A stretch of DNA of 64,000 nucleotides from a virus. This document shows positions 1 to 61,437 of this stretch, piece after piece. Both the position numbers and the translations under genes were made by a program. Numbering within the stretch: the first letter of the stretch is position 1; each line of letters starts with the position of its first letter. The stretch spans positions 1-64,000 of IMG/VR virus record IMGVR_UViG_3300033153_015063; one strand, written 5' to 3'. The notes under the pieces are model-generated. The model was not told the DNA's origin. It worked only from the letters and a program-made list of their open reading frames with translations, and did not search any database.

Positions 1-77
1 TTGTATTGTGTCTTTCCTTCCTCGTACTCGTACCTGTATCTGTTACCGGACCCTGGTGGAATCTCAACGGTGGTCAT
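1..77 (-). CDS. N-terminus of a tagged protein (partial, runs off the window)
   Basis: The ATG at 77 opens a reading frame that leaves the window at base 1. The visible residues are the start of the element-wide tag domain (MTTVEIPPGSGNRYRYEYE, then EGKTQY). A TATA-like box (GTTATAAAC, about 99-107) lies about 26 nt upstream, so the message is probably leaderless. The cargo part of the protein is outside the window, so no function can be given. Confidence 0.8.
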   Translation of the reverse strand, partial: MTTVEIPPGSGNRYRYEYEEGKTQY

Positions 78-297
78 GTCCAGGGAATAAAGAAGGTTGG
101 TTATAAACTGTTCTACTATCATTTTAGTAGATCCATCCAATATTTCGAGTCCCGTAAATTAGCCGATGAAAAGCTAAAACGCTTATTGAATAGCCGAGAA
201 AACGATGAGAAGATAGAAGGTATAATAAGTGTTTTCAACAATAACAGATTGGTTGGCTGACCAGACCCTTACGGGTATGTTTTTTGGTGTCATCGAA

Positions 298-1890
298 CTA
301 TCTCTTTGAGAAGCTGTCGAAGAAGTCCATCATCTCTTGTTCTTCATCGGAGAGAGGGTCAGTCAGTTTCCGGGTTCGCTTCTCATGGTCGAGCTTCAGG
401 GGTCCGTCGGGCCACTGTCCGACCTCGAAGTACTGTTGCTTCTTACGGCCTTTTCCTTTGATGAGAACGGTTCCATTTTCCTCGATGCCGAAGCGGCCAC
501 CAGACCACTGGTCGTGTTCCATCAGTATTCTCCAGAGCTCATGGGGGAACCTGTAGTAGTCCCGTCCCCCCTTCCGTTTGATGAAGGCCCACCGGTTGTT
601 TCCTATGATGGTCAAGGAATATACCTTCGCCTTGTAGTATCTGGACCGTAGATCCAGTTCGGTCTTTGTTGGGACCTTACCATTGGCAAGGGTAATGGGC
701 TGGAGGTCAGGATCGACGATGTGGATATGTTTCGGGTCGAGGACCCCAGACCTGATAAGGTTCAGAGTTCCTGTCTCATCTGTAGTTCCTCTGGCAAAGA
801 GGCGATGGACCAGAGTGACCGGGTGCCCTTCTGGTCGGACACCCCGGCCGATACTCTGGATGAGATGACGTTCTCCAGCCGAGCTGGACATGATAACTAC
901 ACAGTCGATGGTTGGAACGTTCATACCTTCCTGGAAGGTCCTGACGCTGACCAGTAGGTCAGTTTTGCCATCCTTGAAGCGGTTGATTGAACGAGTCCGA
1001 TCATCCCGGGACATCTGGCTATGCTCCATGAAGGCATGGAGGTGGTTCGCCAGTTCCACCGCTGGTGGTATGGACTCACCTACCACAAGCACCCTACGAC
1101 CATCTGAAAGGGCGTCTTTAACGAGTTTCTCAGTGAGGTCAATGCGGGTCTGGTGCTGGTAGAGAGCTCGCTTCCGTTCGAACAGGAGCTCCCTCAACTG
1201 AACGGCAAGGCGACGGCGTTCTGGGTCCTCATCCTTCGTGGCGATGCTGTTCAGCAGTTCTGGTGCCGGAGAATGGAGACCGAGTTTGTTCTCAAGTTGC
1301 TTCTTGTCCCGGCTGTACTTGTCATACTCTGCAGCTTCACTGGGGGCCATGGTGTAACCGACGTTGTTCATCTTGATGGAATGAATAATTCCATCAGAGA
1401 TTCCATCATCAAATGTGTAGCGGTAGATGACCTTCTTGAAGGGCCCCATCTCATCTGGGGCAGTAGCGGTCAGACCGAGTAGCCACCGATAGTCGGTGTC
1501 AAAGATGCGACTATTCTTCTCGGAGAAGTATCTGTGTGCTTCATCACAAACCAGAAGGACGTTTGGGAGATTGATGAGTGGCAACATCTCTCTGGCTGTA
1601 TTGACCACGATGACGTTGACCTTCTCCAGCCCTTTCCCGTTCCTACCTCCGCCCTTCCTGGATGCTTTGATACCCTGTTTCCAGAGCTCCTCATACCACT
1701 GTTCCATCAGGTTCGTACTTGGAACCACGATGAAACAAATAGCATTGGAATACTCAGTGGAAAGACGATTCCAGATTTCGATGGCAACAAAGGTCTTACC
1801 TGAGCCGGTGGAAGCTTCTACGATGCCCTTACCCTTGTCGAGGAAAGTATTGACAGCTTCTACCTGCCACTCTCGAAGTTCTGATGTCAT
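298..1890 (-). CDS. SF2 DEAD/DEAH-type helicase
   Basis: A 530-residue superfamily 2 helicase/ATPase. Walker A is STGSGKT at residues 27-33. Motif II is DEAH at 116-119. LTATAP is a motif III-like segment, and SIGRGVRPEG near residue 360 is motif VI. The layout resembles XPB/type III restriction-like helicases: an N-terminal Q-like segment (ELREWQVEAV), two RecA folds and a C-terminal extension of about 130 residues without a recognised domain. It probably unwinds or remodels duplex DNA during replication, repair or transcription. The ATG at 1890 fits a leaderless start from TATA box 1913-1920, and the gene carries the shared upstream promoter element. It is the first gene after that promoter and is transcribed alone. 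Confidence 0.92.
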   Translation of the reverse strand: MTSELREWQVEAVNTFLDKGKGIVEASTGSGKTFVAIEIWNRLSTEYSNAICFIVVPSTNLMEQWYEELWKQGIKASRKGGGRNGKGLEKVNVIVVNTAREMLPLINLPNVLLVCDEAHRYFSEKNSRIFDTDYRWLLGLTATAPDEMGPFKKVIYRYTFDDGISDGIIHSIKMNNVGYTMAPSEAAEYDKYSRDKKQLENKLGLHSPAPELLNSIATKDEDPERRRLAVQLRELLFERKRALYQHQTRIDLTEKLVKDALSDGRRVLVVGESIPPAVELANHLHAFMEHSQMSRDDRTRSINRFKDGKTDLLVSVRTFQEGMNVPTIDCVVIMSSSAGERHLIQSIGRGVRPEGHPVTLVHRLFARGTTDETGTLNLIRSGVLDPKHIHIVDPDLQPITLANGKVPTKTELDLRSRYYKAKVYSLTIIGNNRWAFIKRKGGRDYYRFPHELWRILMEHDQWSGGRFGIEENGTVLIKGKGRKKQQYFEVGQWPDGPLKLDHEKRTRKLTDPLSDEEQEMMDFFDSFSKR

Positions 1891-1912
1891 ACAACTTGAT
1901 TTGTATTCAGTC

Positions 1913-1952
1913 TTTATATAGTTTCATAGACCAAGACCGTAAAAAGCGTAAA
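1913..1952 (-). promoter_or_regulatory. class-B promoter 1 (TATA plus upstream element)
   Basis: On the plus strand, tttatata (1913-1920) is followed by ccgtaaaaagcgtaaa (1937-1952). In gene sense the element TTTACGCTTTTTACGG lies upstream of TATATAAA. The gtaaaa start is 26 bp from the TATA start, as in eight other copies. It drives the helicase gene. Confidence 0.8.
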
Positions 1953-2011
1953 TGTCTGTTTCATCTGGTCGCTCCCTGAAGAGATACTCCTCAGACCACC
2001 TCGGCCCTCGG

Positions 2012-2473
2012 TCACGACCTTGGTATAAGAGGGACCCGTTGCCATCTCCCACAGTTCAAACACTGAGCTCTGTAGGTCCGACAATGCCATCCACCACCCC
2101 GGTATTCCTTCATCAAGTCGCCACAACCAGGGCAGGTTGGTATCTTTGGTTTGATAGTGCGATTTAGAAGTAGTTTCTCTTCCATGAGTGAAACGGTCCC
2201 CAATAATTTTTCTATGATAAGGTCTTTTTCTCCGATGATCTTTTCCAGGGCATCAATACGTCCTTTTTCCTTATCGAGCTCATCGTTGAGATGCCTCGGT
2301 GCCTGTTTCTTCTTTCCCTTTTCATCTTTATGTCGTGCGAGCTTCAGGTTGACGGCCTGGCCAGTGGTCCCAAACATCTCTCCAATATCCTTGTTGGTGA
2401 GTTTCGGGCTCTTTTTCTTCATCCTGATTATTTCAGGTGCAGAGGGTAGTTTTGAAGGTCTACCACCAGGCAT
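2012..2473 (-). CDS. HTH, coiled-coil and zinc-ribbon protein
   Basis: A 153-residue protein of unknown family. Residues about 10-50 resemble a helix-turn-helix (KLTNKDIGEMFGTTGQAVNLKL). Residues about 60-105 are charged and heptad-like, consistent with a coiled coil. The C-terminus has a zinc-ribbon pattern (CPGCG ... CRTYRAQCLNCG). The combination suggests a DNA-binding regulator or adaptor. A TTTAAAAAG TATA box near 2515-2523 leaves a leader of about 18 nt before the ATG at 2473. Confidence 0.7.
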   Translation of the reverse strand: MPGGRPSKLPSAPEIIRMKKKSPKLTNKDIGEMFGTTGQAVNLKLARHKDEKGKKKQAPRHLNDELDKEKGRIDALEKIIGEKDLIIEKLLGTVSLMEEKLLLNRTIKPKIPTCPGCGDLMKEYRGGGWHCRTYRAQCLNCGRWQRVPLIPRS

Positions 2474-2536
2474 CTATCTCACTTCCATTGTAAAACGGTA
2501 AGATAGGGAGAGTTTAAAAAGAGTACCCTAACCTTA

Positions 2537-3520
2537 TCAGAAATCCAACACGTTATGGCCCTCGGATTCCAGCCTGGCCTCGGCTATCTCAAAGGCACCA
2601 TATCCATCATTGGTGTTCTCCCCGATCTCACTTTCGAACCCGATGTATTTTCTACCCAGGCGATGAGCTGCAATAGCCGTTGTCCCAGAACCAATGAAAG
2701 GGTCCAATACCACATCGCCAAGCCTACTTCCGATGGTGATAAGGTAGGACATCAACTTGATGGGTTTGACTGAGATATGGGTGTTCTTGACCTTCTTTTT
2801 TCTACCTTCCTGTTCTTTGGCCTCGTAGCCCACATTACACCCACAGTTGTAATCCTTTCTTTTTCCGCATTCCACACAGAATAGATTATGAGAGTAGTAG
2901 TCACGATTCCTGGTCTCCGCTATTTGTTCAGTGACGCAGGACCCCTCTCTTTCGAAGTTCTCCAGGCCTTTTTCCTTTTCACTACGTGATGGTTTAGGAA
3001 CGATGAGAAAAGGAAAAGTTCTTTGAATGCTATCGGGTAATTGGTCGATAAGTTTTTCCCACCACCTATCGAGAGAAAAGAACATCGAGTAGTCACCTTC
3101 GTCGCCATAACCCCCCATCTGGAAGTCATCATAACCCCATTTTCCCGCTTTCTCATCTTTTGGTCTGGTTGTTTTACCGCCATCAGATTTCCTGATACAC
3201 CCATCATCAAGTACGTTGTCAGATACCAGTAGGTTCGGGGCAAAGCGACCTCTTGGGTCCACTACTGCATCATCCATCGACTTGTAACCATACTCAGCGG
3301 AACCAGTACCGATACGCCGGCCCTCGACGTTGTGCCGGCCACCGACGGATGGTTCCTCGGTCTCTCCATAGGGTATTTTTCCATCGTCCAACCAACAACA
3401 TCCAGTCCCTTGTTTGCAGAAATGAGCAATAGGTGGTTTTCTGAATTTACCATTAGGCAATCTTTCAACTTCCACCTCGATGCCATTATAATCTATTTCG
3501 TAGATTTTCTTTTCTTCCAT
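2537..3520 (-). CDS. C-terminal half of a split DNA methyltransferase
   Basis: 327 residues. The AdoMet-binding motif I (DPFIGSGTTAIAAHRLGRKYIGFE region) is near the C-terminus, but no DPPY catalytic motif is present. The missing N-terminal half, with TDPPYGLSF, is encoded just upstream at 4305-5006, with a GIY-YIG endonuclease gene between them. The intact paralogue at 35816-37084 shows the expected continuous order. A cysteine cluster (CVECG...CGC) sits mid-protein. The start at 3520 overlaps the endonuclease stop, so translation may be coupled. The chain ends in NVLDF, the C-terminal peptide shared with several DNA enzymes here. Function as a two-chain enzyme is inferred, not shown. Confidence 0.8.
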   Translation of the reverse strand: MEEKKIYEIDYNGIEVEVERLPNGKFRKPPIAHFCKQGTGCCWLDDGKIPYGETEEPSVGGRHNVEGRRIGTGSAEYGYKSMDDAVVDPRGRFAPNLLVSDNVLDDGCIRKSDGGKTTRPKDEKAGKWGYDDFQMGGYGDEGDYSMFFSLDRWWEKLIDQLPDSIQRTFPFLIVPKPSRSEKEKGLENFEREGSCVTEQIAETRNRDYYSHNLFCVECGKRKDYNCGCNVGYEAKEQEGRKKKVKNTHISVKPIKLMSYLITIGSRLGDVVLDPFIGSGTTAIAAHRLGRKYIGFESEIGENTNDGYGAFEIAEARLESEGHNVLDF

Positions 3521-15120: not shown

Positions 15121-15714
15121 ATGACCGTCGTCGAAATCCCTCCAGGTTCAGGGAATAGATACCGCTATGAATATGAAGAGGGAGCTACGGTTTACAAAGG
15201 CCCGGTCGGCACGGCCCCGGAGCTTTCGGAGGGGGAGTTCCTGGAGATGTCCCAGGTTGTTGGCCAGAAAGAACGAAAACTCAAGACAGCCTTCGAGATA
15301 CTGGACCTCGATGAACAAAACCGTTACGATACTGGTCTTGGGGATGTTGATTATGATGTGATGAGTGACCCACCACAGATAGCACTCTGGATGGGAATCG
15401 ACAACCCCCTATCAGATTTCGAGGAGGAAGGATATCATAGTGGTGAATATGAAGTGAGCCAGAGGGACCAGGACAAGATGGGTAAATACTTCGAGGAGAA
15501 CTACAAGGGCATCTCCTTCGACCCATCTCATCTCAACAAACAGTACATCTCTGTGTGGTTCACCATCGAACCGACGATGCCCCCAGATACCAAAAATGAA
15601 GATAAACTCCGGGAATGGTTTGATGGAGAAATGAATAGGGCTTTCCAAGACACCGGGGCCAACAGTTTCAGGAATGATTTTCTCATCTACGGAGAAAAAT
15701 TAGAGTTCGACTAA
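15121..15714 (+). CDS. tagged protein, unknown cargo
   Basis: 197 residues. Residues 1-45 are the tag domain (MTVVEIPPGSGNRYRYEYE ... YKGPVGTAPELSEGEFLEM). The remaining 150 residues look like a small alpha/beta domain (SVWFTIEPTMPP) and are not recognised. The promoter, leader and first codons are nearly identical to those of the tagged gene at 57057, which carries a different cargo. TATA is tttaaata at 15086-15093. Confidence 0.8.
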   Translation: MTVVEIPPGSGNRYRYEYEEGATVYKGPVGTAPELSEGEFLEMSQVVGQKERKLKTAFEILDLDEQNRYDTGLGDVDYDVMSDPPQIALWMGIDNPLSDFEEEGYHSGEYEVSQRDQDKMGKYFEENYKGISFDPSHLNKQYISVWFTIEPTMPPDTKNEDKLREWFDGEMNRAFQDTGANSFRNDFLIYGEKLEFD

Positions 15715-17094: not shown

Positions 17095-17134
17095 TTTATA
17101 TAGTTTCAGGCTTAGTAACCGTAAAAAGCGTAAA
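17095..17134 (-). promoter_or_regulatory. class-B promoter 3
   Basis: tttatata at 17095-17102 and ccgtaaaaagcgtaaa at 17119-17134, 26-bp offset. It shares a long flank (cctcttactaacaatcagc) with promoters 5, 6 and 8. Confidence 0.82.
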
Positions 17135-17150: not shown

Positions 17151-17666
17151 CTACTTTCTCAGAGCGTCTCTCACTTTTTTATCCATACTTGGGGTGAAGT
17201 AGAAATCAATCCTGACGGTCTTTCCACTCGTCATATTCTCACGGTTACTGTGCATGTTCTTCACGGTAAATCGTTGATGGGTCTCAGCCTCGATAAATGT
17301 CCTGAAGTGAGCATCATCGACGGTCTCGCCCTCTTGTTGATGCACGTCGAGACCGTCGACGATTGATATTGGTTCTCCGTATGTGTTCTGGTAAGGTATA
17401 TCATTGTGCATCTTGATATATGATGCACCATCAACCATCAACGATGGCCTGATTACACCCCGTTCTACCAGCCTTTTCAACTGGTGTTGCTTCAGAGTTA
17501 TCTTCTCTGAGGGTTCCTCGGTATCAAATGCTGCCATGAACTCAGGTTCTGTAAGTACTGGAACATCCCCGACCGGCCCCTTGTAGACCGTAGATCCACC
17601 TTCGTACTCGTACCTGTAGCGGTTGCCTGATCCAGGAGGGATTTCAACGATGGATTGTGAGGGCAT
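17151..17666 (-). CDS. tagged protein, unknown cargo
   Basis: 171 residues from the ATG at 17666. After a short MPSQS lead comes the tag (SIVEIPPGSGNRYRYEYE ... TVYKGPVGDVPVLTEPEFM). The cargo begins with a helical segment (LKQHQLKRLVERGVIRPSLM) and includes a beta-rich part (VRIDFYFTPSM). Not recognised. Confidence 0.78.
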   Translation of the reverse strand: MPSQSIVEIPPGSGNRYRYEYEGGSTVYKGPVGDVPVLTEPEFMAAFDTEEPSEKITLKQHQLKRLVERGVIRPSLMVDGASYIKMHNDIPYQNTYGEPISIVDGLDVHQQEGETVDDAHFRTFIEAETHQRFTVKNMHSNRENMTSGKTVRIDFYFTPSMDKKVRDALRK

Positions 17667-17705
17667 CACCCACTGTATAGATTCCGTCAGTAAAAAGCTT
17701 TTCCT

Positions 17706-18768: not shown

Positions 18769-18808
18769 TTTATATACTTTCAGGATTTCTAACTGTAAAA
18801 AGCGTAAT
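18769..18808 (-). promoter_or_regulatory. class-B promoter 4
   Basis: tttatata at 18769-18776 and ctgtaaaaagcgtaat at 18793-18808, 26-bp offset. It drives the small-gene operon 18734 down to about 17706. Confidence 0.8.
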
Positions 18809-18884
18809 AGAATCTACACCATCCCTCATCACCCATCCCTCATCACCCGAACTCTTTAAATACAACCATTCCTATTCCCTGGAC

Positions 18885-19226
18885 ATGACCAGAATAGAGT
18901 TTGATGTCACCAGGGCAGACCTCGTTGGATCGAGTTTTATTGCCTTCCTGATTATGTCCATTGCTATAACAATGGATTTCCTTGGTATAGGTGGTGGGCT
19001 TCAATTCGACCTATGGATGTATGTTGTATTAATAATATTCCTAATACCAATCTCTTTGGTGATGTTTCAGACAATCGCAAAAATAACAAATGATTTTATT
19101 GCGTCTGGTATCTGGATAGCATTCCCCTGGATTTTCACTACCATAGCACCAAACCAATTGATTGATGTTGGTGTCTGGTTCGTAATGATAGGAACTCTTC
19201 TATGGTTCCTGTGGGAATCGGTCTAG
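18885..19226 (+). CDS. four-helix membrane protein (113 aa)
   Basis: The ATG at 18885 stands 26 nt from TATA tttaaata (18855-18862). Four hydrophobic segments (SSFIAFLIMSIAI, MYVVLIIFLIPISLV, IWIAFPWIF, FVMIGTLLWFLW). Not recognised. The leader shares attccctggacatgacc with the tagged gene at the window start, so the promoter region was copied. Confidence 0.72.
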   Translation: MTRIEFDVTRADLVGSSFIAFLIMSIAITMDFLGIGGGLQFDLWMYVVLIIFLIPISLVMFQTIAKITNDFIASGIWIAFPWIFTTIAPNQLIDVGVWFVMIGTLLWFLWESV

Positions 19227-19828
19227 GAAAGGTAGGCGTTGACTTCGTAACGTCCTGTATCGTGCCTGTACCATGAGAGTACCAGGATGGAGTTTTTGAT
19301 TACCTTCCACTCTTCGTCACCTACATCGTCTTTGAATACCCTGGCCATCTCGATACGGGCCCTACCTTCTCTTCCCAACAACATCCCACTCCAACGAGTA
19401 TAATCCTCCTGAAGTGGGACCACCCCGTTATCTTCCATCGACTCAAAGATGTCGTCCAGGGGAATCGCACGATGATAGTGGCTGGTCAAAGGGTACAACT
19501 TATCATTGATTTTATTTTTGATGTTTTTTGGGAGAGTGACCTGGTTTTTAAAATCAGCCACCAGTGGCGGTTTGACCTCGAATTGCTCAAGAGAAAAGTG
19601 TTTTTTGCACCTGTTACACCATATCGTTTTACCCCGGCGAACGATGTCAGATGACCCACATTCGATACAGGTTGTACTCAGGACAACACCTTCACTCATT
19701 GCCTGAATGAAGCGTTCCTCATCCAGGGCTGGTGCATTGCCGACCGGCCCCTTGTAAACCGTAGCTCCCTCTTCGTAGACATACCTATAGCGGTTACCTG
19801 AGCCTTCTGGGATTTCAACGGTGGTCAT
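19223..19828 (-). CDS. tagged zinc-ribbon protein
   Basis: 201 residues from the ATG at 19828, 26 nt from a TATAAAAG box, so leaderless; a longer frame from 19840 would leave too little room. Residues 1-45 are the tag (VEIPEGSGNRYRYVYE ... YKGPVGNAPALDEERF). A zinc ribbon (CIECGSSDIVRRGKTIWCNRC) follows, then an unrecognised helical domain. Upstream DNA is identical to that of the tagged gene at 46803. Confidence 0.8.
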   Translation of the reverse strand: MTTVEIPEGSGNRYRYVYEEGATVYKGPVGNAPALDEERFIQAMSEGVVLSTTCIECGSSDIVRRGKTIWCNRCKKHFSLEQFEVKPPLVADFKNQVTLPKNIKNKINDKLYPLTSHYHRAIPLDDIFESMEDNGVVPLQEDYTRWSGMLLGREGRARIEMARVFKDDVGDEEWKVIKNSILVLSWYRHDTGRYEVNAYLS

Positions 19829-19860
19829 CAAGGAATACAATGGGTGTTGAGTATAAAAGA

Positions 19861-22678: not shown

Positions 22679-22718
22679 TTTATATACTTTCAGGCTTAGT
22701 AACCGTAAAAAGCGTAAA
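22679..22718 (-). promoter_or_regulatory. class-B promoter 5
   Basis: tttatata at 22679-22686 and ccgtaaaaagcgtaaa at 22703-22718, 26-bp offset. It drives the operon 22657 down to 21163. Confidence 0.82.
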
Positions 22719-23997: not shown

Positions 23998-24474
23998 TTA
24001 TGCACGCCTATCCCTTCCACTACCAACCTTCATCCTCTTCAAGAACTCCTCCTCCGTCAACTGAGGGCTATCCCCGACCGGGCCCTTGTAGATGGTTTTA
24101 CCGCCTTCGTAGATGTACCTGTATCTGTTGCCTGAACCTGGGGGAATCTCGACTATGGCACCTTTCACCTTCTCCCTCACTGGACGCTTCGTAAACTTTT
24201 CTCTCTTATGTTTTACCCACTTCTCAAGTTCGGCTTTACACTCCTCGCCATCCCAATCCATCGGTAAGATAAGGTTGCCCATCATATACTCATCATACCA
24301 TCTCTTATTCCACTCGCCCTGCTTACCATGTATCTCTGTCCCAAGATGCCTTCCAAACTCGTTGGGGTTGGCACTTCCATCGTGTGCTATAGCATGGAGT
24401 AGATAGTCCTCGTACTGATTGGGTGTCATAGCCCAGACGCCACCCTCTAACGATACATAGGTGTATCTTGGCAT
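23998..24474 (-). CDS. protein with C-terminal tag domain
   Basis: 158 residues from the ATG at 24474, 25 nt from the shared TATA at 24495-24503. Residues 1-105 are an unrecognised, Trp- and Lys-rich domain (YEDYLLHAIAHDGSANPNEF). The tag (AIVEIPPGSGNRYRYIYE ... YKGPVGDSPQLTEEEFL) is at the C-terminus, followed by a basic tail (RDRRA). This is the only C-terminal placement, so the tag is a portable domain and not an N-terminal signal sequence. Confidence 0.8.
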   Translation of the reverse strand: MPRYTYVSLEGGVWAMTPNQYEDYLLHAIAHDGSANPNEFGRHLGTEIHGKQGEWNKRWYDEYMMGNLILPMDWDGEECKAELEKWVKHKREKFTKRPVREKVKGAIVEIPPGSGNRYRYIYEGGKTIYKGPVGDSPQLTEEEFLKRMKVGSGRDRRA

Positions 24475-24494
24475 ACATGAGGAAAGGCATAAGG

Positions 24495-24503
24495 TATTTA
24501 TAT
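24495..24503. promoter_or_regulatory. bidirectional TATA box
   Basis: tatttatat lies midway between the minus-strand start at 24474 and the plus-strand start at 24524, 25 nt from each. Both strands read as acceptable TATA boxes, so one site may serve two leaderless genes. Confidence 0.55.
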
Positions 24504-24523
24504 CCTTATCGCCATGCATCGTC

Positions 24524-24748
24524 ATGCCCCTGATACCTGAAGAGGTCCGTGAAAAAACAGGCCTGATGGTCGTCACCGCCCTGGGACTTTTCCTAGCACT
24601 CCAGTATTCTGTTGTTGTATCAGACATTTTCGAGGCTTATCTCCCAATGGGCGACAGTCTTATTATCCAGTTGGTTTATCTATTATTAATCACGATAATC
24701 GTGGTATACGCAGTCATCTTTGTTGAGAGACGTTTTGGTTCATCTTGA
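24524..24748 (+). CDS. small membrane protein (74 aa)
   Basis: MPLIPEEVREKTGLMVVTAL, with two hydrophobic segments (LMVVTALGLFLALQYSVVV and LVYLLLITIIVVYAVIFV). Not recognised. The start fits the bidirectional TATA box. CRISPR array 1 begins 22 bp after its stop. Confidence 0.7.
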   Translation: MPLIPEEVREKTGLMVVTALGLFLALQYSVVVSDIFEAYLPMGDSLIIQLVYLLLITIIVVYAVIFVERRFGSS

Positions 24749-25963: not shown

Positions 25964-26464
25964 CTATCGTTTTTTATCTATTCGTCGGCGTGTCAAGCTT
26001 CTCGGTTTCAGGTCGGGTTCAAGTTCCCTGATAAGCACGTTCATCCTTTTCCCCTTCTCGGTGAGACCGCCCTGCCACACCCAATACCGCTCACCGCCAT
26101 GCGGGAACCTTCCTTCATCGGATTCCCAATCTACGAGTCCGTGCCGATACAGAACTGCCAACGTCCTGACGTTGAACAACTGCTGGTCGGTGGTCCCTAT
26201 TGTATGGATTGGTGCATTCGGATGAAGAGTCGAGAGCATGAGGACCCCTTCTTTCTGTGCATTCGAGAGTTTTCTGTATGTCTGGCGTAATTGTACGTCA
26301 AGCACGTCGATCCCCTTTATATCGTCACCAATCATCCCCTTCAAGAACTCCTCCTCCGAAAGCTCAGGTGCTTCTCCCACAGGCCCCTTGTAGACCGTAG
26401 ATCCACCTTCGTACTCGTACCTGTATTTATTCCCTGAACCCTCAGGTATCTCTACAGTGGTCAT
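25964..26464 (-). CDS. tagged winged-helix-like protein
   Basis: 166 residues from the ATG at 26464, 28 nt from a TATTTAAAG box. Tag at residues 1-45 (VEIPEGSGNKYRYEYE ... YKGPVGEAPELSEEEF). The cargo (LSNAQKEGVLMLSTL, then FNVRTLAVLYRHGLVDW and GGLTEKGKRMNVLI) looks like a MarR-type winged helix. Upstream DNA is identical to that of the tagged gene at 61437. Perhaps a DNA-binding regulator carried to the tag's destination. Confidence 0.8.
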   Translation of the reverse strand: MTTVEIPEGSGNKYRYEYEGGSTVYKGPVGEAPELSEEEFLKGMIGDDIKGIDVLDVQLRQTYRKLSNAQKEGVLMLSTLHPNAPIHTIGTTDQQLFNVRTLAVLYRHGLVDWESDEGRFPHGGERYWVWQGGLTEKGKRMNVLIRELEPDLKPRSLTRRRIDKKR

Positions 26465-26622
26465 TGGAGAGTGATAGGGCCGGAGAGTATTTAAAGAGTT
26501 CGGGAGGTTTATTACCACCGTCATCATCTATTGACCGCCACCGAAGTCAATCATACCAGTCAATGAAGGCACTATACACTTCCTCTCCATCTTCCTTTTT
26601 CATCAAAGTTAGACCACTTTGT

Positions 26623-32004: not shown

Positions 32005-32109
32005 CCTCTTACTAACAATCAGCCTTTATATACTTTCAGGCTTAGTAACCGTAAAAAGCGTAAAAGACCCTTTCACTCTCCGTGCAGTCGGTCTAGCTTG
32101 AATCGACGG
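32005..32109. repeat. 105-bp promoter duplication shared with 49680-49784
   Basis: Class-B promoter plus about 40 bp behind it (tttcactctccgtgcag...gaatcgacgg) occurs here and at 49680-49784 with equal length and few mismatches. The stretch beyond the promoter lies in different contexts, so the copy moved as a block. Confidence 0.85.
32025..32064 (-). promoter_or_regulatory. class-B promoter 6
   Basis: tttatata at 32025-32032 and ccgtaaaaagcgtaaa at 32049-32064, 26-bp offset. It reads into the genes at 31991 and 31747. Confidence 0.82.
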
Positions 32110-37084: not shown

Positions 37085-37096
37085 CTCGTTTCACCC

Positions 37097-38326: not shown

Positions 38327-38392
38327 TATCGAGAAATGGCCGCCCGTCTTTATAAAGAGTTTGAAAGCGTTCTGGAACTCCTTCATTTCCAG

Positions 38393-39125: not shown

Positions 39126-39851
39126 TCACCGATTAATTTTTTCGGACCTTCCCTCATTTTTCTTTGCGAGTTTGTTGATGGCCCACTGATATTCACAACC
39201 AGGACACTCAACATACAACCACTGACGTTGTGGAAAACCATCTACACATTGGCCGTCGGAGTGGTCATAGTACTTGAGTCGGTGGAAATCGAGCTCTGTG
39301 CCACAAGTTGGGCAATCTGGAGATTGAGTACGTTTCAATTCCTCAATCCAACCATCAAGAGTTAAATCGTATTTGGGAATTATAATATGTGGTTCAAAAA
39401 TATCAGTCTCTGGGAGACCCCTGACCGGCCCCTTGTACACGGTCTTGCCGCCTTCGTAGACGTATTTGTAGCGGTTACCTGAACCTGGGGGAATTTCAAT
39501 TACAGTCGTCCCTCTACATTTTATCTTTCTACATTTTTTGAGTATATAATCATTGATAACTCTATCCATCTGCCCCCTTGTATAACCATCGAGTGAGTCC
39601 CAGTCAACAGATATAAACACGACATCACTACTCATAACTTCATAATGTGTTTTACATAAGGGGCACCATTTTATTTTGCCTCTACTCCTTTGTTCACCAC
39701 ATGTATGTTTATGGTCAAATATTACTTTGTCAAATATCTTACAGAAAACGTCAGATGGGGCTGGATTTTTATGTTTCCGGTGCTTGGTCCATTGCTGAAA
39801 AAACAACGGAAGATTGAACTCATCAAGAGTGAATGTTAGATTCATCGGCAT
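39126..39851 (-). CDS. protein with internal tag domain and zinc ribbons
   Basis: 241 residues. Residues 1-115 hold a zinc site (CGEQRSRGKIKWCPLCKTH). The tag occupies about 116-150 (VIEIPPGSGNRYKYVYE ... YKGPVRGLPE) and has R in place of the usual G after GPV. A C-terminal ribbon follows (CPTCG...CPGCEYQW). This is the only internal placement. Confidence 0.8.
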   Translation of the reverse strand: MPMNLTFTLDEFNLPLFFQQWTKHRKHKNPAPSDVFCKIFDKVIFDHKHTCGEQRSRGKIKWCPLCKTHYEVMSSDVVFISVDWDSLDGYTRGQMDRVINDYILKKCRKIKCRGTTVIEIPPGSGNRYKYVYEGGKTVYKGPVRGLPETDIFEPHIIIPKYDLTLDGWIEELKRTQSPDCPTCGTELDFHRLKYYDHSDGQCVDGFPQRQWLYVECPGCEYQWAINKLAKKNEGRSEKINR

Positions 39852-44048: not shown

Positions 44049-44088
44049 TTTATATAGTTTCATGGTTTTGAACCGTAAAAAGCGTAAA
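44049..44088 (-). promoter_or_regulatory. class-B promoter 7
   Basis: tttatata at 44049-44056 and ccgtaaaaagcgtaaa at 44073-44088, 26-bp offset. It drives the operon 44026 down to the GHKL gene. Confidence 0.8.
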
Positions 44089-46194: not shown

Positions 46195-46803
46195 CTACCA
46201 TCGAGGGATTCTTCTTGCGAAAACATCAGCTCTGGATTCTCTTCGATAGAAGGGGTCCACTTTCCCGTTGATATCAACTGACCGATATGTGATTGAATTG
46301 GTATAACCATCCGAGAAGACCTGTGCATTCCAGACGATACGGCTGTTCTTGACTGCTACAATCCCTACCCCCAACCCATTATGCTTACTCCATATGGGAG
46401 GAGATGTTGACTGATTACCTATGCTGACGTGTAGTTCGAGACCTTCCTTGATGCTTTGCTTTGTGAGTCGTCGGAGTTTGTTCACCAATGCACGGCCTTC
46501 TGCCGCTGCATATTTTTCATCTCTCTCTACAGCGATATGGGCCATGGCTTTTTTCATAGCATCCGTCTTGAGGATATCGGACACTTGAATTGGAGTATTT
46601 ATCGGCACATCCGATCTATCTTCCCATGTTATCTCTATAGATGGCTTGGATCTTTTCAATCCACCCATACTGAACATCTCCAGGAACTCCTCCTCCGAAA
46701 GCTCCGGGGCCGTGCCGACCGGCCCCTTGTAGACCGTAGCTCCCTCTTCATATTCATAGCGGTATCTATTCCCTGAACCCTCAGGTATCTCTACGGTGGT
46801 CAT
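46195..46803 (-). CDS. tagged protein, unknown cargo
   Basis: 202 residues from the ATG at 46803. Tag at 1-45 (VEIPEGSGNRYRYEYE ... YKGPVGTAPELSEEEF). The cargo is alpha/beta (SIEITWEDRSD, GIVAVKNSRIVWNAQVF). Promoter DNA matches that of the tagged gene at 19828 though the cargoes are unrelated. Confidence 0.8.
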   Translation of the reverse strand: MTTVEIPEGSGNRYRYEYEEGATVYKGPVGTAPELSEEEFLEMFSMGGLKRSKPSIEITWEDRSDVPINTPIQVSDILKTDAMKKAMAHIAVERDEKYAAAEGRALVNKLRRLTKQSIKEGLELHVSIGNQSTSPPIWSKHNGLGVGIVAVKNSRIVWNAQVFSDGYTNSITYRSVDINGKVDPFYRRESRADVFARRIPRW

Positions 46804-49679: not shown

Positions 49680-49784
49680 CCTCTTACTAACAATCAGCCT
49701 TTATATACTTTCAGCACCTTCAACCGTAAAAAGCGTAAAAGATCCTTTCACTCTCCGTGCAGCCGGTCTAGATTGAATCGACGG
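49680..49784. repeat. 105-bp promoter duplication shared with 32005-32109
   Basis: See the partner. Here the duplicated tail enters the 3' end of the zinc-protein gene at 49768-50103, supplying its last codons. Confidence 0.85.
49700..49739 (-). promoter_or_regulatory. class-B promoter 8
   Basis: tttatata at 49700-49707 and ccgtaaaaagcgtaaa at 49724-49739, 26-bp offset. Confidence 0.82.
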
Positions 49785-51622: not shown

Positions 51623-51823
51623 ACCAACAAGAAACCTAACCATCTTTATAAAGATTCTTCATCTTTTCTCCGCTTCGAGCTCCGCAACCCGTGTGTTCAA
51701 TCGAGTGATGTGGTCAGTAACCAGTTACTTCTCTGTCAACCACTCACACCAAATGCAACGTTCGGAAGAGACACAGACTACGAACTCTTTAAATACATCC
51801 CATACTATTCCTTGGTCAATACT

Positions 51824-53297
51824 ATGACCATAGTCGAAATCCCCCCAGGTTCAGGGAATAAATACAGGTACGTTTACGAACAATCAAGTCAGGACACTGT
51901 CTACAAGGGGCCAGTAGGCCAGGCCCCGGAACTGGGAGACCTATGTAGTTGGTGGTGCGGTCCGGGACCTCGTGATGGGTCGGGAACCGAAGGACTACGA
52001 TATTGCAACATCAGCTACTCCCGGAGAGATAAAGGACATCTTCGGAGACGAAGTGGCCAAGACAATCGGTGGTGACGTTCACGGGACTGTCCTTATCAAA
52101 GACCCCCGTCGGGGAGGACGAGAACCGATGGAGGTTACGACGTTCAGAAAAGAAACCTATGGTGAGGCGGGCCGAGGTAGAAGGCCCACAGATGTAGAGT
52201 GGACCCGTTCGCTTGAAGAGGATCTCGGGCGTCGGGATTTTACTATCAACGCCATGGCCATGAAGACCGATGGAACTGTCATAGACCCCTACAACGGTAT
52301 TTCTGACATCAAAGCAGGTGTTATCCGGGCGGTGGGGAACCCAGACCTACGTTTCGATGAAGACCGTCTCAGGATGCTTCGGGCTGTCCGTTTCGCCAGC
52401 AGGTTTGGGTTCGATATCGAATCGGGCACAAAAAATTCGATCCAGAGAAACAAAGACAGCATCAACGAGTTACGGGCTGACGGACAACGTGTTGTGTCAT
52501 GGGAACGTATCAGAGGTGAGTATGACAAGGGTTTCTCACAACAGATGTTTGAGGCTGCCGCTGAGGTAGGGTTACTCGATGAAACCATACCAGAGGTCGC
52601 TGACCTGATTGGCTTTGAACAACGGAACCCCTGGCACTATGGCGACGTCTACGCACATACGATGGATGTGGTCAATGAGGGTATGAAGATGGAAGCACCG
52701 AAGGAGGTTAGGTGGGCATCTCTTCTCCATGATGTTGGTAAGATACAAACACGAACCATCGAAGAAAAGGAAGGCCAACAGATACATCGCTTCTTTGGGC
52801 ACGACAAGGTATCGGCTACGATGTCAGACGAGATACTGACCAAACTCAAATTCCCCAATGATGAGAAGGAATACATCAAGCTTCTGGTCTCGAAGCACAT
52901 GGTTCAACTGCCAGACGTCGATGACCCAGGTTTTGGTCGGGCGGTGGACCGATGGGAACGGAGGCTACAAGCAAAAGTGAAGAAGAACCCCAACAAATAC
53001 AAACCCAGGGTTGCAGGGGACCTGTTGATGCTTCGTAAGGCCGATGCCCTTGCCCATGTCGGTGGCGTCGAACTGGCTACCAATGTTGATGCGGTCCAGA
53101 GACACCGAGAGAACAGACAACCTGTGGTCGAGGTCAAACCAGTCCTGAGTGGCAAAGACCTGATAAACATGGGCTATGACCCTGGACCCAGGTTCAAGGA
53201 TATATTACAGTCTCTTACAGATTGGGAAGATGACCTTGGTTACAGACCAACGAAAGAGATGGCCCAGACCTTCATTGAAGAGAATTATGGTGAATGA
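51824..53297 (+). pseudogene. tagged CCA-adding/poly(A)-polymerase-like enzyme, frame-shifted
   Basis: The tag starts at the ATG 51824 (VEIPPGSGNKYRYVYE ... YKGPVGQAPELGD). The enzyme continues in the +1 frame: TYVVGGAVRDLVMGREPKDY from 51939, with DYD catalytic acids, then DLGRRDFTINAMAM, RFDEDRLRMLRAVRFASRFG, and an HD domain (RWASLLHDVGKIQ, HD motif). This is a bacterial-type class II tRNA nucleotidyltransferase with HD; archaea normally use class I. The enzyme frame is open only from 51918, so tag and enzyme must be joined by a +1 shift, or the gene is broken by one base. A start at 51972 would lose the GGAVRD motif. Confidence 0.8.
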
Positions 53298-54109
53298 GTA
53301 TGTCCATAGTCGAAATCCCTCCAGGTTCAGGGAATAAATACAGGTATGAGTACAACGCTGAGACCAAGGCTACAATCTACAAGGGGCCGGTCGGCACGGC
53401 CCCTGAGATGGGAGAAGAGGAGTTCATGGCGGCTATGGTGAAAAGCCCTGAAGAACGATATCCCGGTCTCTTCATGGACACAGATAAAGATGGTATCCCG
53501 AACGTCGATGACACTGAGCCACTTGTATATGGTGGTGGTTGGGTCGAAGAGATTTCACTCGCCGAGGAGATGAGAAAGATACTATCTCATAGAGATTCAT
53601 ATGATGAAGATTTACCAAAACTCAAAAGTGAGCTAAGGGGCATATCACCAGATGACGCTGAAATCAAAGGAAGAACAAAAAGTCTTTACTCTATAATAAA
53701 CAAACTACAACGTTCTCATCTCGATAAAATGCATGACATAATGGCCGCCAGAATAGTAGTTAATGATAACAAAGAACTTATGAGAGTGAAAGCGAACGTC
53801 GAGAAAAAATACAACCAAAATGTATTATCAGTCTGGGATTATTATAGTAATCCACTTGGTGGTTATCGTGCCTATCATTATATCATCGAAGGGTCTGACG
53901 GAAAAATGTTCGAGCTACAATTAAAAACAAAGAGATTATCAAGATTGAGCTCATTATCTCACACACCATACAAGAAAGGGGCACTCGACAAAGCGGAGTA
54001 TGGAAGATTGAGTGAACTGGCCGTCAGAGCTGATATGGAAGACAGTGATGCTATGAGTGTATTTGATGGGTACTCAGATGAAGAGTTAATTAATATGATA
54101 GAGAAGTAA
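53294..54109 (+). CDS. tagged RelA/SpoT-type nucleotide synthetase
   Basis: 271 residues. Tag at 1-48 (VEIPPGSGNKYRYEYN ... YKGPVGTAPEMGEEEF), then a DTDKDGIPNVDDTEP calcium-type loop, then a RelA/SpoT domain: GRTKSLYSIINKLQR, HDIMAARIVV with the catalytic Asp, DYYSNPLGGYRAYH, and FELQLKT with the Glu. Short synthetases make (p)ppGpp or ppApp; toxSAS members pyrophosphorylate tRNA 3' ends. The start overlaps the stop of the CCA-enzyme-like gene (ATGA), so the two are linked. Confidence 0.85.
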   Translation: MSMSIVEIPPGSGNKYRYEYNAETKATIYKGPVGTAPEMGEEEFMAAMVKSPEERYPGLFMDTDKDGIPNVDDTEPLVYGGGWVEEISLAEEMRKILSHRDSYDEDLPKLKSELRGISPDDAEIKGRTKSLYSIINKLQRSHLDKMHDIMAARIVVNDNKELMRVKANVEKKYNQNVLSVWDYYSNPLGGYRAYHYIIEGSDGKMFELQLKTKRLSRLSSLSHTPYKKGALDKAEYGRLSELAVRADMEDSDAMSVFDGYSDEELINMIEK

Positions 54110-54185
54110 CCATCCTCCCACCACCTCCCACCTCTCGTTCCCAGTTCCCGAACTCTTTAAATACCCATCAGCTCATCCATAGCCG

Positions 54186-55247
54186 ATGACCACCGTTGAG
54201 ATTCCACCAGGGTCCGGTAACAGATACAGGTACGAGTACGAAAATGGTAAAACTGTGTACAAGGGGCCGGTCGGCAATGCACCTGAGCTGGGAGAGGTTG
54301 AGTTCCTGGAGATGATGGCTGGGGTGGGTATAGAGGACCCTGTAGTTGGTTGCCCTATTCATGGTGACACTGATATCAAAAAAGGTAGGGCAAGGTCAAT
54401 TAAAGAAGCCAAAAAAACATATACTGTAATTCCAGGAAAGAAATGTGGGATTTGTGGTGGTCCAATAGTAGAACTTCGTTCTGCACGTCCTGGTGTTGTA
54501 GTCGAACTTGGAAAGGGTGTTACAGACCCCAACATCAGAGACCTACCATTAAACGAGGACAGTACTGGCGACGAGGCGTATGTCATCGGAAGAGACAGAG
54601 ATACAGTGTATGTTTCCAGGCGTCGTCGTAAAAGTGACGGCTTGATGGAAGAGACCATCTACAGGATATCAGACCCCACAGGAAAACTCAAGTATGAATA
54701 TGGTGTAGGTGAACATGTCCCTTTCGACTACAGAAACCGGTATCAATTCTACTGGCAAAACCCCTGGTCTGGACAACATATTTATTATCCATTCAAAGAT
54801 GAGTTTGGTAGTCGTCGATACTGGATTACCAGTAAAACAACCAAGGAAGAGAAAGAAGTTCGCAATCAGTGGCTGACCACCCAGATGAGAACCGAAGGTT
54901 ACAATGTTATACAGATATGGCCGGACAGGGGACGTATCACAAAAGTGGAGATAAAAGAGTTGAAGAACGTTCTGAGAACAGGAAAGATGCATGGTTTCGA
55001 GTCAGATGAGTTCGATAAGGATTACAACAGGATGTGGGACGTTCTTGGGACCGATAAAGGGAACCGCATCGACAACATGTACAGGCACGTCTCGGACCTG
55101 GAGGGAGAGGATACGTCGAATGTGGTGTTCAGAATCCACTCTTCACAAAAAGAAGAGGCTGGAGAGTTCATGGATGCACCTTATGGATATTTTGAGAAGC
55201 GTTACCAAGATGGGATTTCCAAACCTGCCAGACACCTGGTTTTCTAA
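54186..55247 (+). CDS. tagged protein, zinc-containing cargo
   Basis: 353 residues. Tag at 1-45 (TVEIPPGSGNRYRYEYE ... YKGPVGNAPELGEVEF). The cargo has CPIHGDTDIKKGRARSIKEA with a later CGICGG pair (zinc), a basic RRRRKS loop and a Tyr/Trp-rich part (NRYQFYWQNPW). No family recognised. TATA ctttaaata is 26 nt upstream of the ATG. Confidence 0.78.
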   Translation: MTTVEIPPGSGNRYRYEYENGKTVYKGPVGNAPELGEVEFLEMMAGVGIEDPVVGCPIHGDTDIKKGRARSIKEAKKTYTVIPGKKCGICGGPIVELRSARPGVVVELGKGVTDPNIRDLPLNEDSTGDEAYVIGRDRDTVYVSRRRRKSDGLMEETIYRISDPTGKLKYEYGVGEHVPFDYRNRYQFYWQNPWSGQHIYYPFKDEFGSRRYWITSKTTKEEKEVRNQWLTTQMRTEGYNVIQIWPDRGRITKVEIKELKNVLRTGKMHGFESDEFDKDYNRMWDVLGTDKGNRIDNMYRHVSDLEGEDTSNVVFRIHSSQKEEAGEFMDAPYGYFEKRYQDGISKPARHLVF

Positions 55248-56337: not shown

Positions 56338-57057
56338 CTAATCGCTTTTCTCGATGATTAACTGAAGACCATAGTCTCCATCGGCCTCGGAATTTCCAAA
56401 GAAAAATTGTGCTGAGTAACCGTCGGGGACTGAGAACTCTGTGAGATTGTTGAGGCCACCAGCGACTCTGTCCAGCGTCGGTTCGATAAGGTCGCCCCAT
56501 ACTTCAGGGCCGTATTGTACACCATATCCAGGACTCAATCCAGGGCCTTCGATGTAATCTTCTAATTCCTTTTCGGGAAAGAGGCCCTCAAACTCGGAGA
56601 TGACCTCCCCTGGCATATATGTTCCAGCGGAACCTGATGCGACAGTCTCTATCCAGTACTCGGCCCTCCCATCATCGAACTCGTATTCCTCGAAATTGGG
56701 TCCTATGACCTCGTTGAGTGCTGCCTGAGCGGCCATTTCTGCCCGCTTGATGCCATTATGACCATAGGCTTTCAGAGCTGATGCAGCATCTTTGGCCTCT
56801 CCCATGCTGGAGAAATATTCACCGGCCACGAACATGTTGGCAGCGGTCTCGATATCAACATCCTTGGCGATGATGGAGAGTGCTTCCAGGTCAGTCTTCA
56901 CCCTTGGATTCATACCACTCCGCTCCATCATCTCCAGGAACTCCCCCTCCGAAATCTCCGGGGCCGTGCCGACCGGCCCCTTGTACACAGTCTTGCCGCC
57001 TTCGTAGACGTATTTGTAGCGGTTACCTGAACCTGGGGGGATTTCGACGACGGTCAT
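56338..57057 (-). CDS. tagged protein, unknown cargo
   Basis: 239 residues. Tag at 1-45 (TVVEIPPGSGNRYKYVYE ... YKGPVGTAPEISEGEF). The cargo is helical then beta-rich and ends in AQFFFGNSEADGDYGLQLII. Not recognised. Its promoter and leader are almost identical to those of the tagged gene at 15121. Confidence 0.8.
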   Translation of the reverse strand: MTVVEIPPGSGNRYKYVYEGGKTVYKGPVGTAPEISEGEFLEMMERSGMNPRVKTDLEALSIIAKDVDIETAANMFVAGEYFSSMGEAKDAASALKAYGHNGIKRAEMAAQAALNEVIGPNFEEYEFDDGRAEYWIETVASGSAGTYMPGEVISEFEGLFPEKELEDYIEGPGLSPGYGVQYGPEVWGDLIEPTLDRVAGGLNNLTEFSVPDGYSAQFFFGNSEADGDYGLQLIIEKSD

Positions 57058-57501: not shown

Positions 57502-57930
57502 CTATGAAGATGAAAGATGCTCTTTGATAGATTCAACGTGGATTTCTTTTTCCTGAAGGGCCGATAGACGTGGAGGGATACGATAAGCAACCTTAATAGG
57601 TCGAATTTTTTTCAATCGTGTAAAATTCCTTTTGAAGTCGCCCTTGACCAGATCCCCATTTTTATCATACCCCCAGATAAGGAGTTTCGAAGGGTCAGGG
57701 TGCCTGTTCTCCTTATCGACATAGACGATGATTGGGTCGCTCCAGAGGTTCTCCTGATACTCGTATGCCAACAGGGTAGCCTCGCCCCTTCCCTTTCCTA
57801 TAACATTCAAGAACTCCTCTTCTCCCATCTCAGGGGCCGTGCCGACCGGCCCCTTGTACTGTGTCTTGCCGCCTTCATATTCGTAGCGGTATCTATTCCC
57901 TGAACCTGGAGGGATTTCGACGACGGTCAT
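57502..57930 (-). CDS. tagged protein, small cargo
   Basis: 142 residues. Tag at 1-45 (TVVEIPPGSGNRYRYEYE ... YKGPVGTAPEMGEEEF). The cargo is a beta-rich stretch (DPIIVYVDKENRHPD, LLIWGYDKNGDLVKGDF) followed by a basic helix. Not recognised. TATA tatttaaag 26 nt upstream. Confidence 0.8.
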   Translation of the reverse strand: MTVVEIPPGSGNRYRYEYEGGKTQYKGPVGTAPEMGEEEFLNVIGKGRGEATLLAYEYQENLWSDPIIVYVDKENRHPDPSKLLIWGYDKNGDLVKGDFKRNFTRLKKIRPIKVAYRIPPRLSALQEKEIHVESIKEHLSSS

Positions 57931-60447: not shown

Positions 60448-60780
60448 TTAAGATAAACATGATCTTCTGGACATTTCTAGTTTGGTGATGATACGTGCGA
60501 TGCTTTTTGCCCGTTCTAGATTCTCTTCTTCAATCTCTTTTTCACTCTCGATTGTGTTCATAATACCCCATAAAACATCGTGGGTAAGCTCGCCACTCTT
60601 GACCATCTCCATCTGTTCGTAACAAATATCCTGAAAGGATGGATTTTCGATTATTATATCTTCATCAAGTGCCCAATCTTCAAGTATATTCAATAGTAGA
60701 CTTTTTTCGGTGTCATCAAGATCTACAGGTATCTTTCTCTGACCCATTTTAGGGGTTGGATTATCTGGTATGGCAGGCAT
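60448..60780 (-). CDS. acidic helical protein (110 aa)
   Basis: MPAIPDNPTPKMGQRKIPVD, then a long acidic helical stretch (ESEKEIEEENLERAKSIARI). TATA tatttatgg near 60801. Unknown function. Confidence 0.62.
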   Translation of the reverse strand: MPAIPDNPTPKMGQRKIPVDLDDTEKSLLLNILEDWALDEDIIIENPSFQDICYEQMEMVKSGELTHDVLWGIMNTIESEKEIEEENLERAKSIARIITKLEMSRRSCLS

Positions 60781-60825
60781 TCTAACTTCATCCTTTACGG
60801 TATTTATGGTTCAAGTTGGGAAAAG

Positions 60826-60833
60826 TATATAAA
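60826..60833 (+). promoter_or_regulatory. TATA box of the tRNA gene
   Basis: tatataaa centred about 29 nt before the first base of the tRNA, the expected distance for archaeal tRNA transcription. Confidence 0.7.
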
Positions 60834-60858
60834 TCTAGATCCAAAGGTAGTAGTGGGA

Positions 60859-60944
60859 CCGGGGGTGGCTGAGTGGCCGAAGGCGAGGGGTTTAAATCCC
60901 ATCGGCGTCGCTGCCCATCGTGGGTTCGAATCCTGCCCCCCGGA
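60859..60944 (+). tRNA. tRNA-Leu (anticodon UAA)
   Basis: 86 nt, class II. Acceptor ccggggg (60859-60865) pairs with cccccgg (60937-60943) over 7 bp. Anticodon loop tttaaat (60891-60897) gives UAA; the stem has one G-A mismatch. A long variable arm (ggcg/tgcc) is typical of Leu. T arm: gtggg-ttcgaat-cctgc. Discriminator A is followed by an encoded CCA (60945-60947). It would read UUA, and UUG by wobble. Confidence 0.88.
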
Positions 60945-61005
60945 CCACCTTTACCTCCCATCCGATTACACTACTTGATGTATAACTCTGTCTGAGTTAT
61001 TAAAG

Positions 61006-61437
61006 TTAATCCATCAAGTAAAGTCTGGACCTGAGGTCATTGACAAACACTTCAGGATTTCTTTCGATGAAAGTGGGCCAATCAGGAGTATCACTACTCT
61101 GGCCGTGACTCATGGCATAGTAGATGGCCTTTCTTCTCTTATCACTGGATGTATCTGGACCGATAATACGGGCAAGTGAGAACAACTCATCCATGGCCAT
61201 CGCTTCAGTTCCCATCCATCTATCAGTTTCGATGACCTGGCCGTTGACGATGTATGGCCTGATATCGTATTGTACCTCAACAACATTCTCGGCTGGAGAG
61301 ATAGTCATGGCGTAGATAAACTCCCCCTCGCTCATCTCAGGAGAATCCCCGACCGGCCCCTTGTAGACCGTAGCTCCCTCTTCATATTCATAGCGGTATC
61401 TGTTACCTGAGCCAGGAGGGATTTCGACGGTGGTCAT
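61006..61437 (-). CDS. tagged protein, unknown cargo
   Basis: 143 residues. Tag at 1-45 (TVEIPPGSGNRYRYEYE ... YKGPVGDSPEMSEGEF). The cargo is helical (AMAMDELFSLARIIGPDTSS). Upstream DNA matches the tagged gene at 26464. Not recognised. Confidence 0.8.
   Translation of the reverse strand: MTTVEIPPGSGNRYRYEYEEGATVYKGPVGDSPEMSEGEFIYAMTISPAENVVEVQYDIRPYIVNGQVIETDRWMGTEAMAMDELFSLARIIGPDTSSDKRRKAIYYAMSHGQSSDTPDWPTFIERNPEVFVNDLRSRLYLMD

What the first reader, a model, noticed from the sequence alone, without database searches (positions are those of the whole stretch)
1..61437. A portable ~45-residue tag domain on 14 unrelated proteins
VEIPPGSGNRYRYEYE...TVYKGPVG...APEL.EEF is attached to proteins starting at 77, 15121, 17666, 19828, 24474, 26464, 39851, 46803, 51824, 53294, 54186, 57057, 57930 and 61437. 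Twelve copies are N-terminal, one is internal (39126-39851) and one C-terminal (23998-24474). Cargoes include a CCA-enzyme-like protein, a RelA/SpoT synthetase, a winged helix and zinc proteins. A domain that works at any position on many effectors suggests a shared address: packaging into virions, docking to one viral structure, or secretion. I know of no described family that matches; halovirus GPRGG-type tags are only a loose analogy.
Basis: partly seen in the sequence, partly recalled or inferred. Interest (0 to 1): 0.92.

Follow-up and report, generated by a model that had tools for sequence, protein, structure and literature searches.

The report
Promoter-plus-tag cassette on 41 unrelated proteins
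A large archaea-type mobile element of about 243 kb has put the same small folded tag, usually together with its own promoter, on about 41 otherwise unrelated soluble proteins, which suggests one shared docking signal used to send or tether a whole set of effector proteins.

Summary
All 14 tags in the window are real, and the 242,596-bp record that holds it carries 41 strong copies among about 250 genes, plus four divergent N-terminal relatives. The tag is conserved as protein: synonymous sites are near saturation (median pS 0.67) while pN is 0.17. AlphaFold2 predicts beta-beta-beta-alpha. Cargoes are almost all unrelated, soluble and at most 375 aa. Most N-terminal copies come as a 5' cassette (archaeal TATA promoter, ATG, tag) with sharp DNA edges; copies are mosaics of one another, and near-identical cassettes sit on unrelated cargoes. 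C-terminal, internal and operon-internal copies lack the promoter, so the tag has a function of its own. The tag is absent from Pfam and from the phage, plasmid, other IMG/VR and GTDB sequences searched. A distant family is likely: an N-terminal hairpin on IS transposases and on three unrelated proteins of a provirus-like archaeal contig. Virion packaging is weakened because no terminase or other virion gene was recognised. My best reading is a docking module for an effector regulon, ligand unknown, with nucleic acid or nucleoprotein somewhat favoured.

The parts
1..77 (-). N-terminal tag, cut by the left end of the record
   Evidence: 50 bits over profile positions 1-23
15121..15258 (+). N-terminal tag of ORF 15121-15714, unknown cargo
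   Evidence: 94.6 bits
17520..17669 (-). N-terminal tag of ORF 17151-17669, unknown cargo
   Evidence: 88 bits; start region differs from the common cassette
19691..19828 (-). N-terminal tag of ORF 19223-19840, CxxC zinc-ribbon-like cargo
   Evidence: 82.6 bits; weak zinc hits
24025..24156 (-). C-terminal tag of ORF 23998-24627; no promoter in front
   Evidence: 92.4 bits, residues 161-205 of 212
26327..26464 (-). N-terminal tag of ORF 25964-26527; cargo is a distant paralogue of tagged 106609-107112
   Evidence: 85.5 bits; cargo E 3e-7
26488..26501 (-). promoter element GAACTCTTTAWATA of the tag cassette
39372..39503 (-). internal tag of ORF 39126-39851, between two Cys-rich parts; no promoter in front
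   Evidence: 74.3 bits, residues 117-161 of 241
46666..46803 (-). N-terminal tag of ORF 46195-46803
   Evidence: 89.6 bits
46827..46840 (-). promoter element of the tag cassette
51782..51795 (+). promoter element of the tag cassette
51824..51937 (+). tag; the CCA-adding enzyme follows in the +1 frame (open 51918-53297)
   Evidence: 72.3 bits; frames; tRNA nucleotidyltransferase PHROG E 1.9e-61
53294..53443 (+). N-terminal tag of the RelA/SpoT synthetase ORF 53294-54109; starts at the stop of the CCA ORF, no promoter of its own
   Evidence: 84.4 bits; PF04607 E 7.2e-18
54150..54163 (+). promoter element of the tag cassette
54186..54323 (+). N-terminal tag of ORF 54186-55247, Cys-containing cargo
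   Evidence: 93.6 bits
56920..57057 (-). N-terminal tag of ORF 56338-57057; 5' cassette 98% identical over 179 nt to that at 86.5 kb, cargo unrelated
   Evidence: 93.7 bits
57085..57098 (-). promoter element of the tag cassette
57793..57930 (-). N-terminal tag of ORF 57502-57930
   Evidence: 89.4 bits
57952..57965 (-). promoter element of the tag cassette
61300..61437 (-). N-terminal tag of ORF 61006-61437
   Evidence: 90.8 bits

Best explanation
The tag is a small independent domain (predicted beta-beta-beta-alpha, about 44 residues) that acts as a common docking module. The element has built a regulon of about 40 small soluble effector proteins by repeatedly recombining one 5' cassette (archaeal TATA promoter, start codon, tag) in front of unrelated genes, and less often by fusing the tag alone inside or behind a protein. 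Shown: the copies, the purifying selection on the protein, the sharp cassette edges, the mosaic exchange between copies, the unrelated soluble cargoes and the shared promoter. Inferred: the domain binds one common partner through its conserved base (the PxGSGN and YKGPVG loops and three nearly always basic strand residues), bringing the effectors to one place in the cell that bears the element. The partner is unknown. I favour nucleic acid or nucleoprotein of the element slightly over a purely protein partner, because the likely wider family sits at the N-terminus of transposases and has a basic hairpin.
For: 41 strong copies at N-terminal, internal and C-terminal positions. Median pS 0.67 against pN 0.17 over 741 pairs, and Ser kept through both TCN and AGY codons. 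Positions 11 and 13 of the coding alignment are R/K in 37 and 39 of 39 copies and the K of YKGP is K/R in 38. AF2 pLDDT 80, strand-strand-strand-helix. DNA identity at background outside about -50 to +130 and 0.68-0.83 inside. Mosaic 5' and 3' halves. GAACTCTTTAWATA before 10 of 32 ATG-started tags against 0 of 141 untagged genes with free upstream DNA, p 1e-8. Only three cargo pairs related, one marginally. No hydrophobic segment in 39 tagged proteins against 31 of 184 untagged, p 0.004. Likely wider family: hhalign 96% over 33 columns, same predicted element order, three unrelated proteins on one provirus-like archaeal contig and transposase N-termini.
Against: No partner identified. The C-terminal helix is acidic and the tag's median net charge is -3, which is unusual for a nucleic-acid binder. 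No significant structural match. The link to the transposase family was first found with a pattern taken from the tag, so the shared GSGN motif was selected for. Timing of expression and localisation are unknown.
Confidence: 0.5

Rival explanations
1. Virion packaging signal: tagged proteins are loaded into the particle and delivered to the next host, as the internal proteins of phage T4 are by the capsid targeting sequence.
For: Small, soluble, unrelated cargoes behind one N-terminal tag resemble T4 internal proteins (PMC9026906). An [L/M]xE motif ends most tags, like a prohead protease site; this is equally a common helix start.
Against: No terminase (PF03237, phrog_2, controls positive) and no portal, capsid or tail family listed in PHROG scans of about 140 untagged proteins. 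Internal and C-terminal copies do not fit a cleaved N-terminal propeptide.
Confidence: 0.15
2. Expression leader: the tag is kept because it gives strong translation or solubility to genes read from a short-leader promoter, with no partner.
For: Promoter, ATG and tag move together.
Against: C-terminal, internal and operon-internal copies have no promoter of this type in front, and residues rather than codons are conserved.
Confidence: 0.15
3. Regulatory or stability tag: the domain is a sensor, dimerisation element or degron that controls all tagged proteins together.
For: One module on many enzymes and unknowns with a shared promoter class.
Against: No ligand-binding family matches, and no direct evidence either way.
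Confidence: 0.1
4. Selfish or recombination-driven repeat without benefit to the cargo.
For: Near-identical copies on unrelated genes and mosaic exchange; two copies are out of frame with their cargo.
Against: Strong purifying selection on the protein with saturated synonymous sites and in-frame fusion in nearly all copies.
Confidence: 0.05

Closest known systems
N-terminal hairpin of archaeal and Chloroflexi IS transposases and small archaeal proteins (no Pfam name; alignment A9 here)
   Same: Conserved PxGSGN-Y-x-Y strand, Y-x-G end of the hairpin, predicted strand-strand-strand-helix order, N-terminal position, several unrelated proteins on one contig
   Different: The tag's hairpin is about 8 residues shorter, lacks the invariant QK, has an acidic helix, and is present in 41 copies joined to a promoter
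Phage T4 capsid targeting sequence on internal proteins
   Same: One N-terminal address on several small unrelated effectors (PMC9026906)
   Different: T4's signal is about 10 residues, cleaved and capsid-dependent; here it is a folded 44-residue domain, also internal and C-terminal, with no virion genes found
Shared early-gene regulatory sequence of archaeal viruses (anti-defense genes)
   Same: A TTTAWATA-type promoter repeated in front of unrelated small genes (PMC11065993)
   Different: There only the regulatory DNA is shared; here the conserved unit continues into the protein
BRO-N, KilA-N and AP2/NUMOD-type mobile N-terminal domains of large DNA viruses and phages (from general knowledge)
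   Same: Small domains shuffled onto different C-terminal parts in one genome
   Different: No Pfam match of the tag to any of them; weak AP2 and integrase-arm fold hits are not significant

Membership tests
IS-transposase / archaeal N-terminal hairpin family (A9) | Profile similarity across the hairpin | tested here: met
   hhalign 96% over 33 columns; the outside profile A8 picks out 43 tag or tag-relative places in the record at E 3.5e-5 to 0.05. First link selected by a motif of the tag, so partly circular
IS-transposase / archaeal N-terminal hairpin family (A9) | Same fold | tested here: inconclusive
   Both models strand-strand-strand-helix; coordinates not superposed
IS-transposase / archaeal N-terminal hairpin family (A9) | Long basic hairpin with invariant QK | tested here: not met
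   The tag's hairpin is shorter and has no QK
T4-type capsid targeting sequence | Genome encodes a tailed-phage head and packaging machine | tested here: not met
   No terminase or other packaging family found; an unrecognised capsid cannot be excluded
T4-type capsid targeting sequence | N-terminal and removed by prohead protease | tested here: inconclusive
   Mostly N-terminal, but internal and C-terminal copies exist; the [L/M]xE motif is ambiguous; no protease family was listed
AP2 / integrase arm-binding domain | Significant sequence or structure match | tested here: inconclusive
   Foldseek hits only at E 0.3 or higher; no Pfam hit
BRO-N / KilA-N | Pfam match | tested here: not met
   No such match of the tagged proteins
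Family I inorganic pyrophosphatase | Whole-domain similarity | tested here: not met
   Only an 18-23 residue local match (E[IV]PxGSxNKYEY), best PDB E 0.0018

The most novel reading that the evidence does not exclude
A mobile element of archaea runs a modular protein-sorting system: one folded address domain, propagated with its own promoter as a gene-capture cassette, directs about 40 unrelated effectors to a single receptor or compartment built by the element (replication site, particle or host structure). This would be a general targeting code of an archaeal element, comparable in scope to a secretion or organelle-import signal.
Probability: 0.3. Interest if true: 0.92.

Novelty: new variant of a known kind. 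Interest (0 to 1): 0.74.

Why it matters
About one gene in six of a 243-kb archaea-type element carries the same domain, and the way tags are gained (a promoter-start-tag unit recombined in front of unrelated genes) can be read directly from the DNA. If the tag is an address, finding its receptor would explain where a whole set of unknown proteins works. The tag would also serve as a bait for discovering effector genes, as the shared early promoter did for archaeal anti-defense genes, and possibly as a natural targeting tag for archaeal biotechnology.

Tried and rejected
Strict and alignment-based searches for the tag in phage records, plasmids, IMG/VR and GTDB contigs gave nothing. The degenerate-pattern hits in viral contigs and most of those in genome contigs were chance or out of frame. 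The pyrophosphatase similarity was rejected as a short local motif. Circularity of the record from its 64-nt end overlap is not proven, because the same 64-mer also occurs near 215.2 kb inside a third tag. Relatives of the element through its DNA polymerase or its upstream regulatory motif were not found in viral contigs; a Ham1 search gave only a 35% relative in another contig, which lacks the tag. A search of viral contigs with the wider hairpin family found none. Foldseek on both models gave no significant match. Shared cargo homology as an explanation of the repeats was rejected. Host assignment beyond archaea-type promoters and genes was not achieved.
Full report
1. Observation. The window is bases 1-64000 of a 242,596-bp record classed as a virus in IMG/VR. 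The same record holds 41 strong copies (one partial, two cut by the record ends) and divergent N-terminal relatives at 64267, 64835, 98954 and 101081. A simple gene call gives about 250 genes, so about one gene in six is tagged. Positions are as reported: mostly N-terminal, one internal and one C-terminal.

2. The tag is selected as a protein. Over 741 copy pairs the median proportion of synonymous differences is 0.67 (near saturation) and of non-synonymous differences 0.17. At the conserved Ser both TCN and AGY codons occur. The invariant or nearly invariant residues are E-I-P-x-G-S-G-N, three alternating Tyr, Y-K-G-P-V-G, P, E and F. Length varies mainly by 0 or +2 residues at the hairpin tip. 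AlphaFold2 on 36 copies gives mean pLDDT 80 with strands 2-5, 13-19, 22-29 and helix 37-45. My reading of the strand register is that the invariant Tyr form one face and R/K13, R/K15 and K26 (numbered from Met) the other; this is inferred, as I could not inspect coordinates.

3. Cargoes. With tags removed, only three cargo pairs resemble each other, one of them marginally (E 0.01), and one tagged cargo has an untagged neighbour paralogue, 162263-162730. Firm families are RelA/SpoT, Ham1 and DUF5661; the divergent 98954 protein resembles a zinc metalloprotease weakly. Three PHROG families match the tagged set, none with a function. No tagged protein of 39 has a hydrophobic segment, against 31 of 184 untagged (p 0.004), and none exceeds 375 aa.

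4. The cassette. Mean pairwise DNA identity of copies is at background (0.25-0.28) upstream of about -50 and downstream of about +130, and 0.68-0.83 inside the tag. The copies at 56.3 and 86.5 kb are 98% identical over 179 nt with unrelated cargo. Upstream lies an archaeal TATA-type promoter, about 29-36 nt before ATG in most cases. The form GAACTCTTTAWATA occurs 11 times in the record, 10 of them before tags, and before 0 of 141 untagged genes with free upstream DNA. Copies are mosaics: 5' halves can be identical with different 3' halves and the reverse, and the C-terminal copy shares its 3' half with N-terminal ones. Copies without such a promoter (C-terminal, internal, and operon copies at 53294 and 215.2 kb) show that the tag is kept for its own sake.

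5. Two regulons. At least 21 untagged genes, including helicase-like and CobS/CobT-type genes, share a different upstream element, TTACGCTTTTTACGGTT plus GAAACTATATAAAGGCTGA. No ATG-started tagged gene has it (0/32 against 21/141, p 0.015). Tagged genes therefore look like a separate expression class. [quoted passage not shown] This is an analogy, not a test.

6. Relatives. The tag is not in Pfam and was not found in phage, plasmid, IMG/VR or GTDB contigs by strict search. A looser pattern reached the N-terminus of Chloroflexi IS240-type transposases. From there I reached a 71-aa archaeal protein, other transposases, small archaeal proteins, and three unrelated proteins (71, 160 and about 493 aa, the last with an HEALH zinc-protease-like motif) on one 35.7-kb contig (G016:C13). 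That contig also has a resolvase, restriction genes and membrane and spike-like proteins next to carAB genes, which I read as a provirus. Profile comparison gives 96% over 33 columns. AlphaFold2 of the wider family gives the same element order with a longer hairpin. I regard common descent as likely but not proven, because the first link was selected by a motif of the tag. The similarity to inorganic pyrophosphatase is a short local motif.

7. Is it a virus? No terminase family matches, with working controls. PHROG scans of about 140 untagged proteins name replication genes, about 11 methyltransferase-like genes, integrases and homing endonucleases, but no head, packaging or tail family; weaker families were not all listed. 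Pfam shows class II ribonucleotide reductase, thymidylate synthase, gyrase A, an SNF2 helicase, and large PKD and thrombospondin-3 proteins. A giant plasmid-like element or a virus with an unknown particle are both open, so virion packaging cannot be the leading reading.

8. Mechanism. Shown: a conserved, probably folded module, position-independent, spread with a promoter onto unrelated soluble proteins. Inferred: a common docking partner. For nucleic acid as partner speak the transposase context and the conserved basic residues. Against it speak the acidic helix and mildly negative net charge and the lack of a significant structural match. For an expression leader speaks the joint promoter; against it speak the copies without one. 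I give docking 0.5 overall, with the ligand unresolved.

9. Oddities. The cassette at 51824 and its near-identical copy at 124542 (99% over 118 nt) are both followed by their cargo in the +1 frame: a CCA-adding enzyme and a 157-codon open frame, with no start codon before the CCA motif. Programmed +1 frameshifting at the end of this tag variant, or a damaged cassette copied twice, would explain it. The copy at 220.28 kb follows a stop codon with CCG in place of ATG. These need reads and proteomics.

Noticed in passing
window 17117-17133, 18791-18807, 22701-22717, 32047-32063, 44071-44087, 49722-49738 (-) and more places in the record: A conserved upstream element TTACGCTTTTTAC[G/A]GTT followed 16-20 nt later by GAAACTATATAAAGGCTGA precedes at least 21 untagged genes: a second, separate regulon.
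   Followed up: partly
window 51824-53297 and record 124542-125109: Two near-identical tag cassettes are each followed by an unrelated cargo in the +1 frame; possible programmed frameshift or a copied frame error.
   Followed up: partly
record 219771-220298 (-), L017:7771-8298: Tag in frame directly after the stop codon of another tagged gene, with CCG where other copies have ATG: read-through, or a dead copy.
   Followed up: no
window 1-64 and record 242533-242596: The record's ends share a 64-nt direct overlap inside a tag copy; a third copy of the 64-mer near 215.2 kb means this may be a repeat-caused assembly break rather than circularity.
   Followed up: partly
record 66959-77397 and 88471-94729: Large proteins with PKD domains and one with 17 thrombospondin type 3 repeats, plus a 1490-aa protein without Pfam match: surface-protein-like clusters.
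   Followed up: no
window 2537-3520, 26623-27498, 32137-32997, 33872-34243, 35816-38386 and further copies in the record: About 11 DNA methyltransferase-like genes of related families in one element.
   Followed up: no
window 18849-18862 (+): The one GAACTCTTTAWATA promoter element in the record that has no tag behind it.
   Followed up: no
L089 (G016:C13:1-20000): Provirus-like archaeal contig with three unrelated proteins carrying the wider N-terminal hairpin; the 493-aa one has a zinc-protease-like motif, as does the divergently tagged 98954-100123 protein of the window's record.
   Followed up: partly
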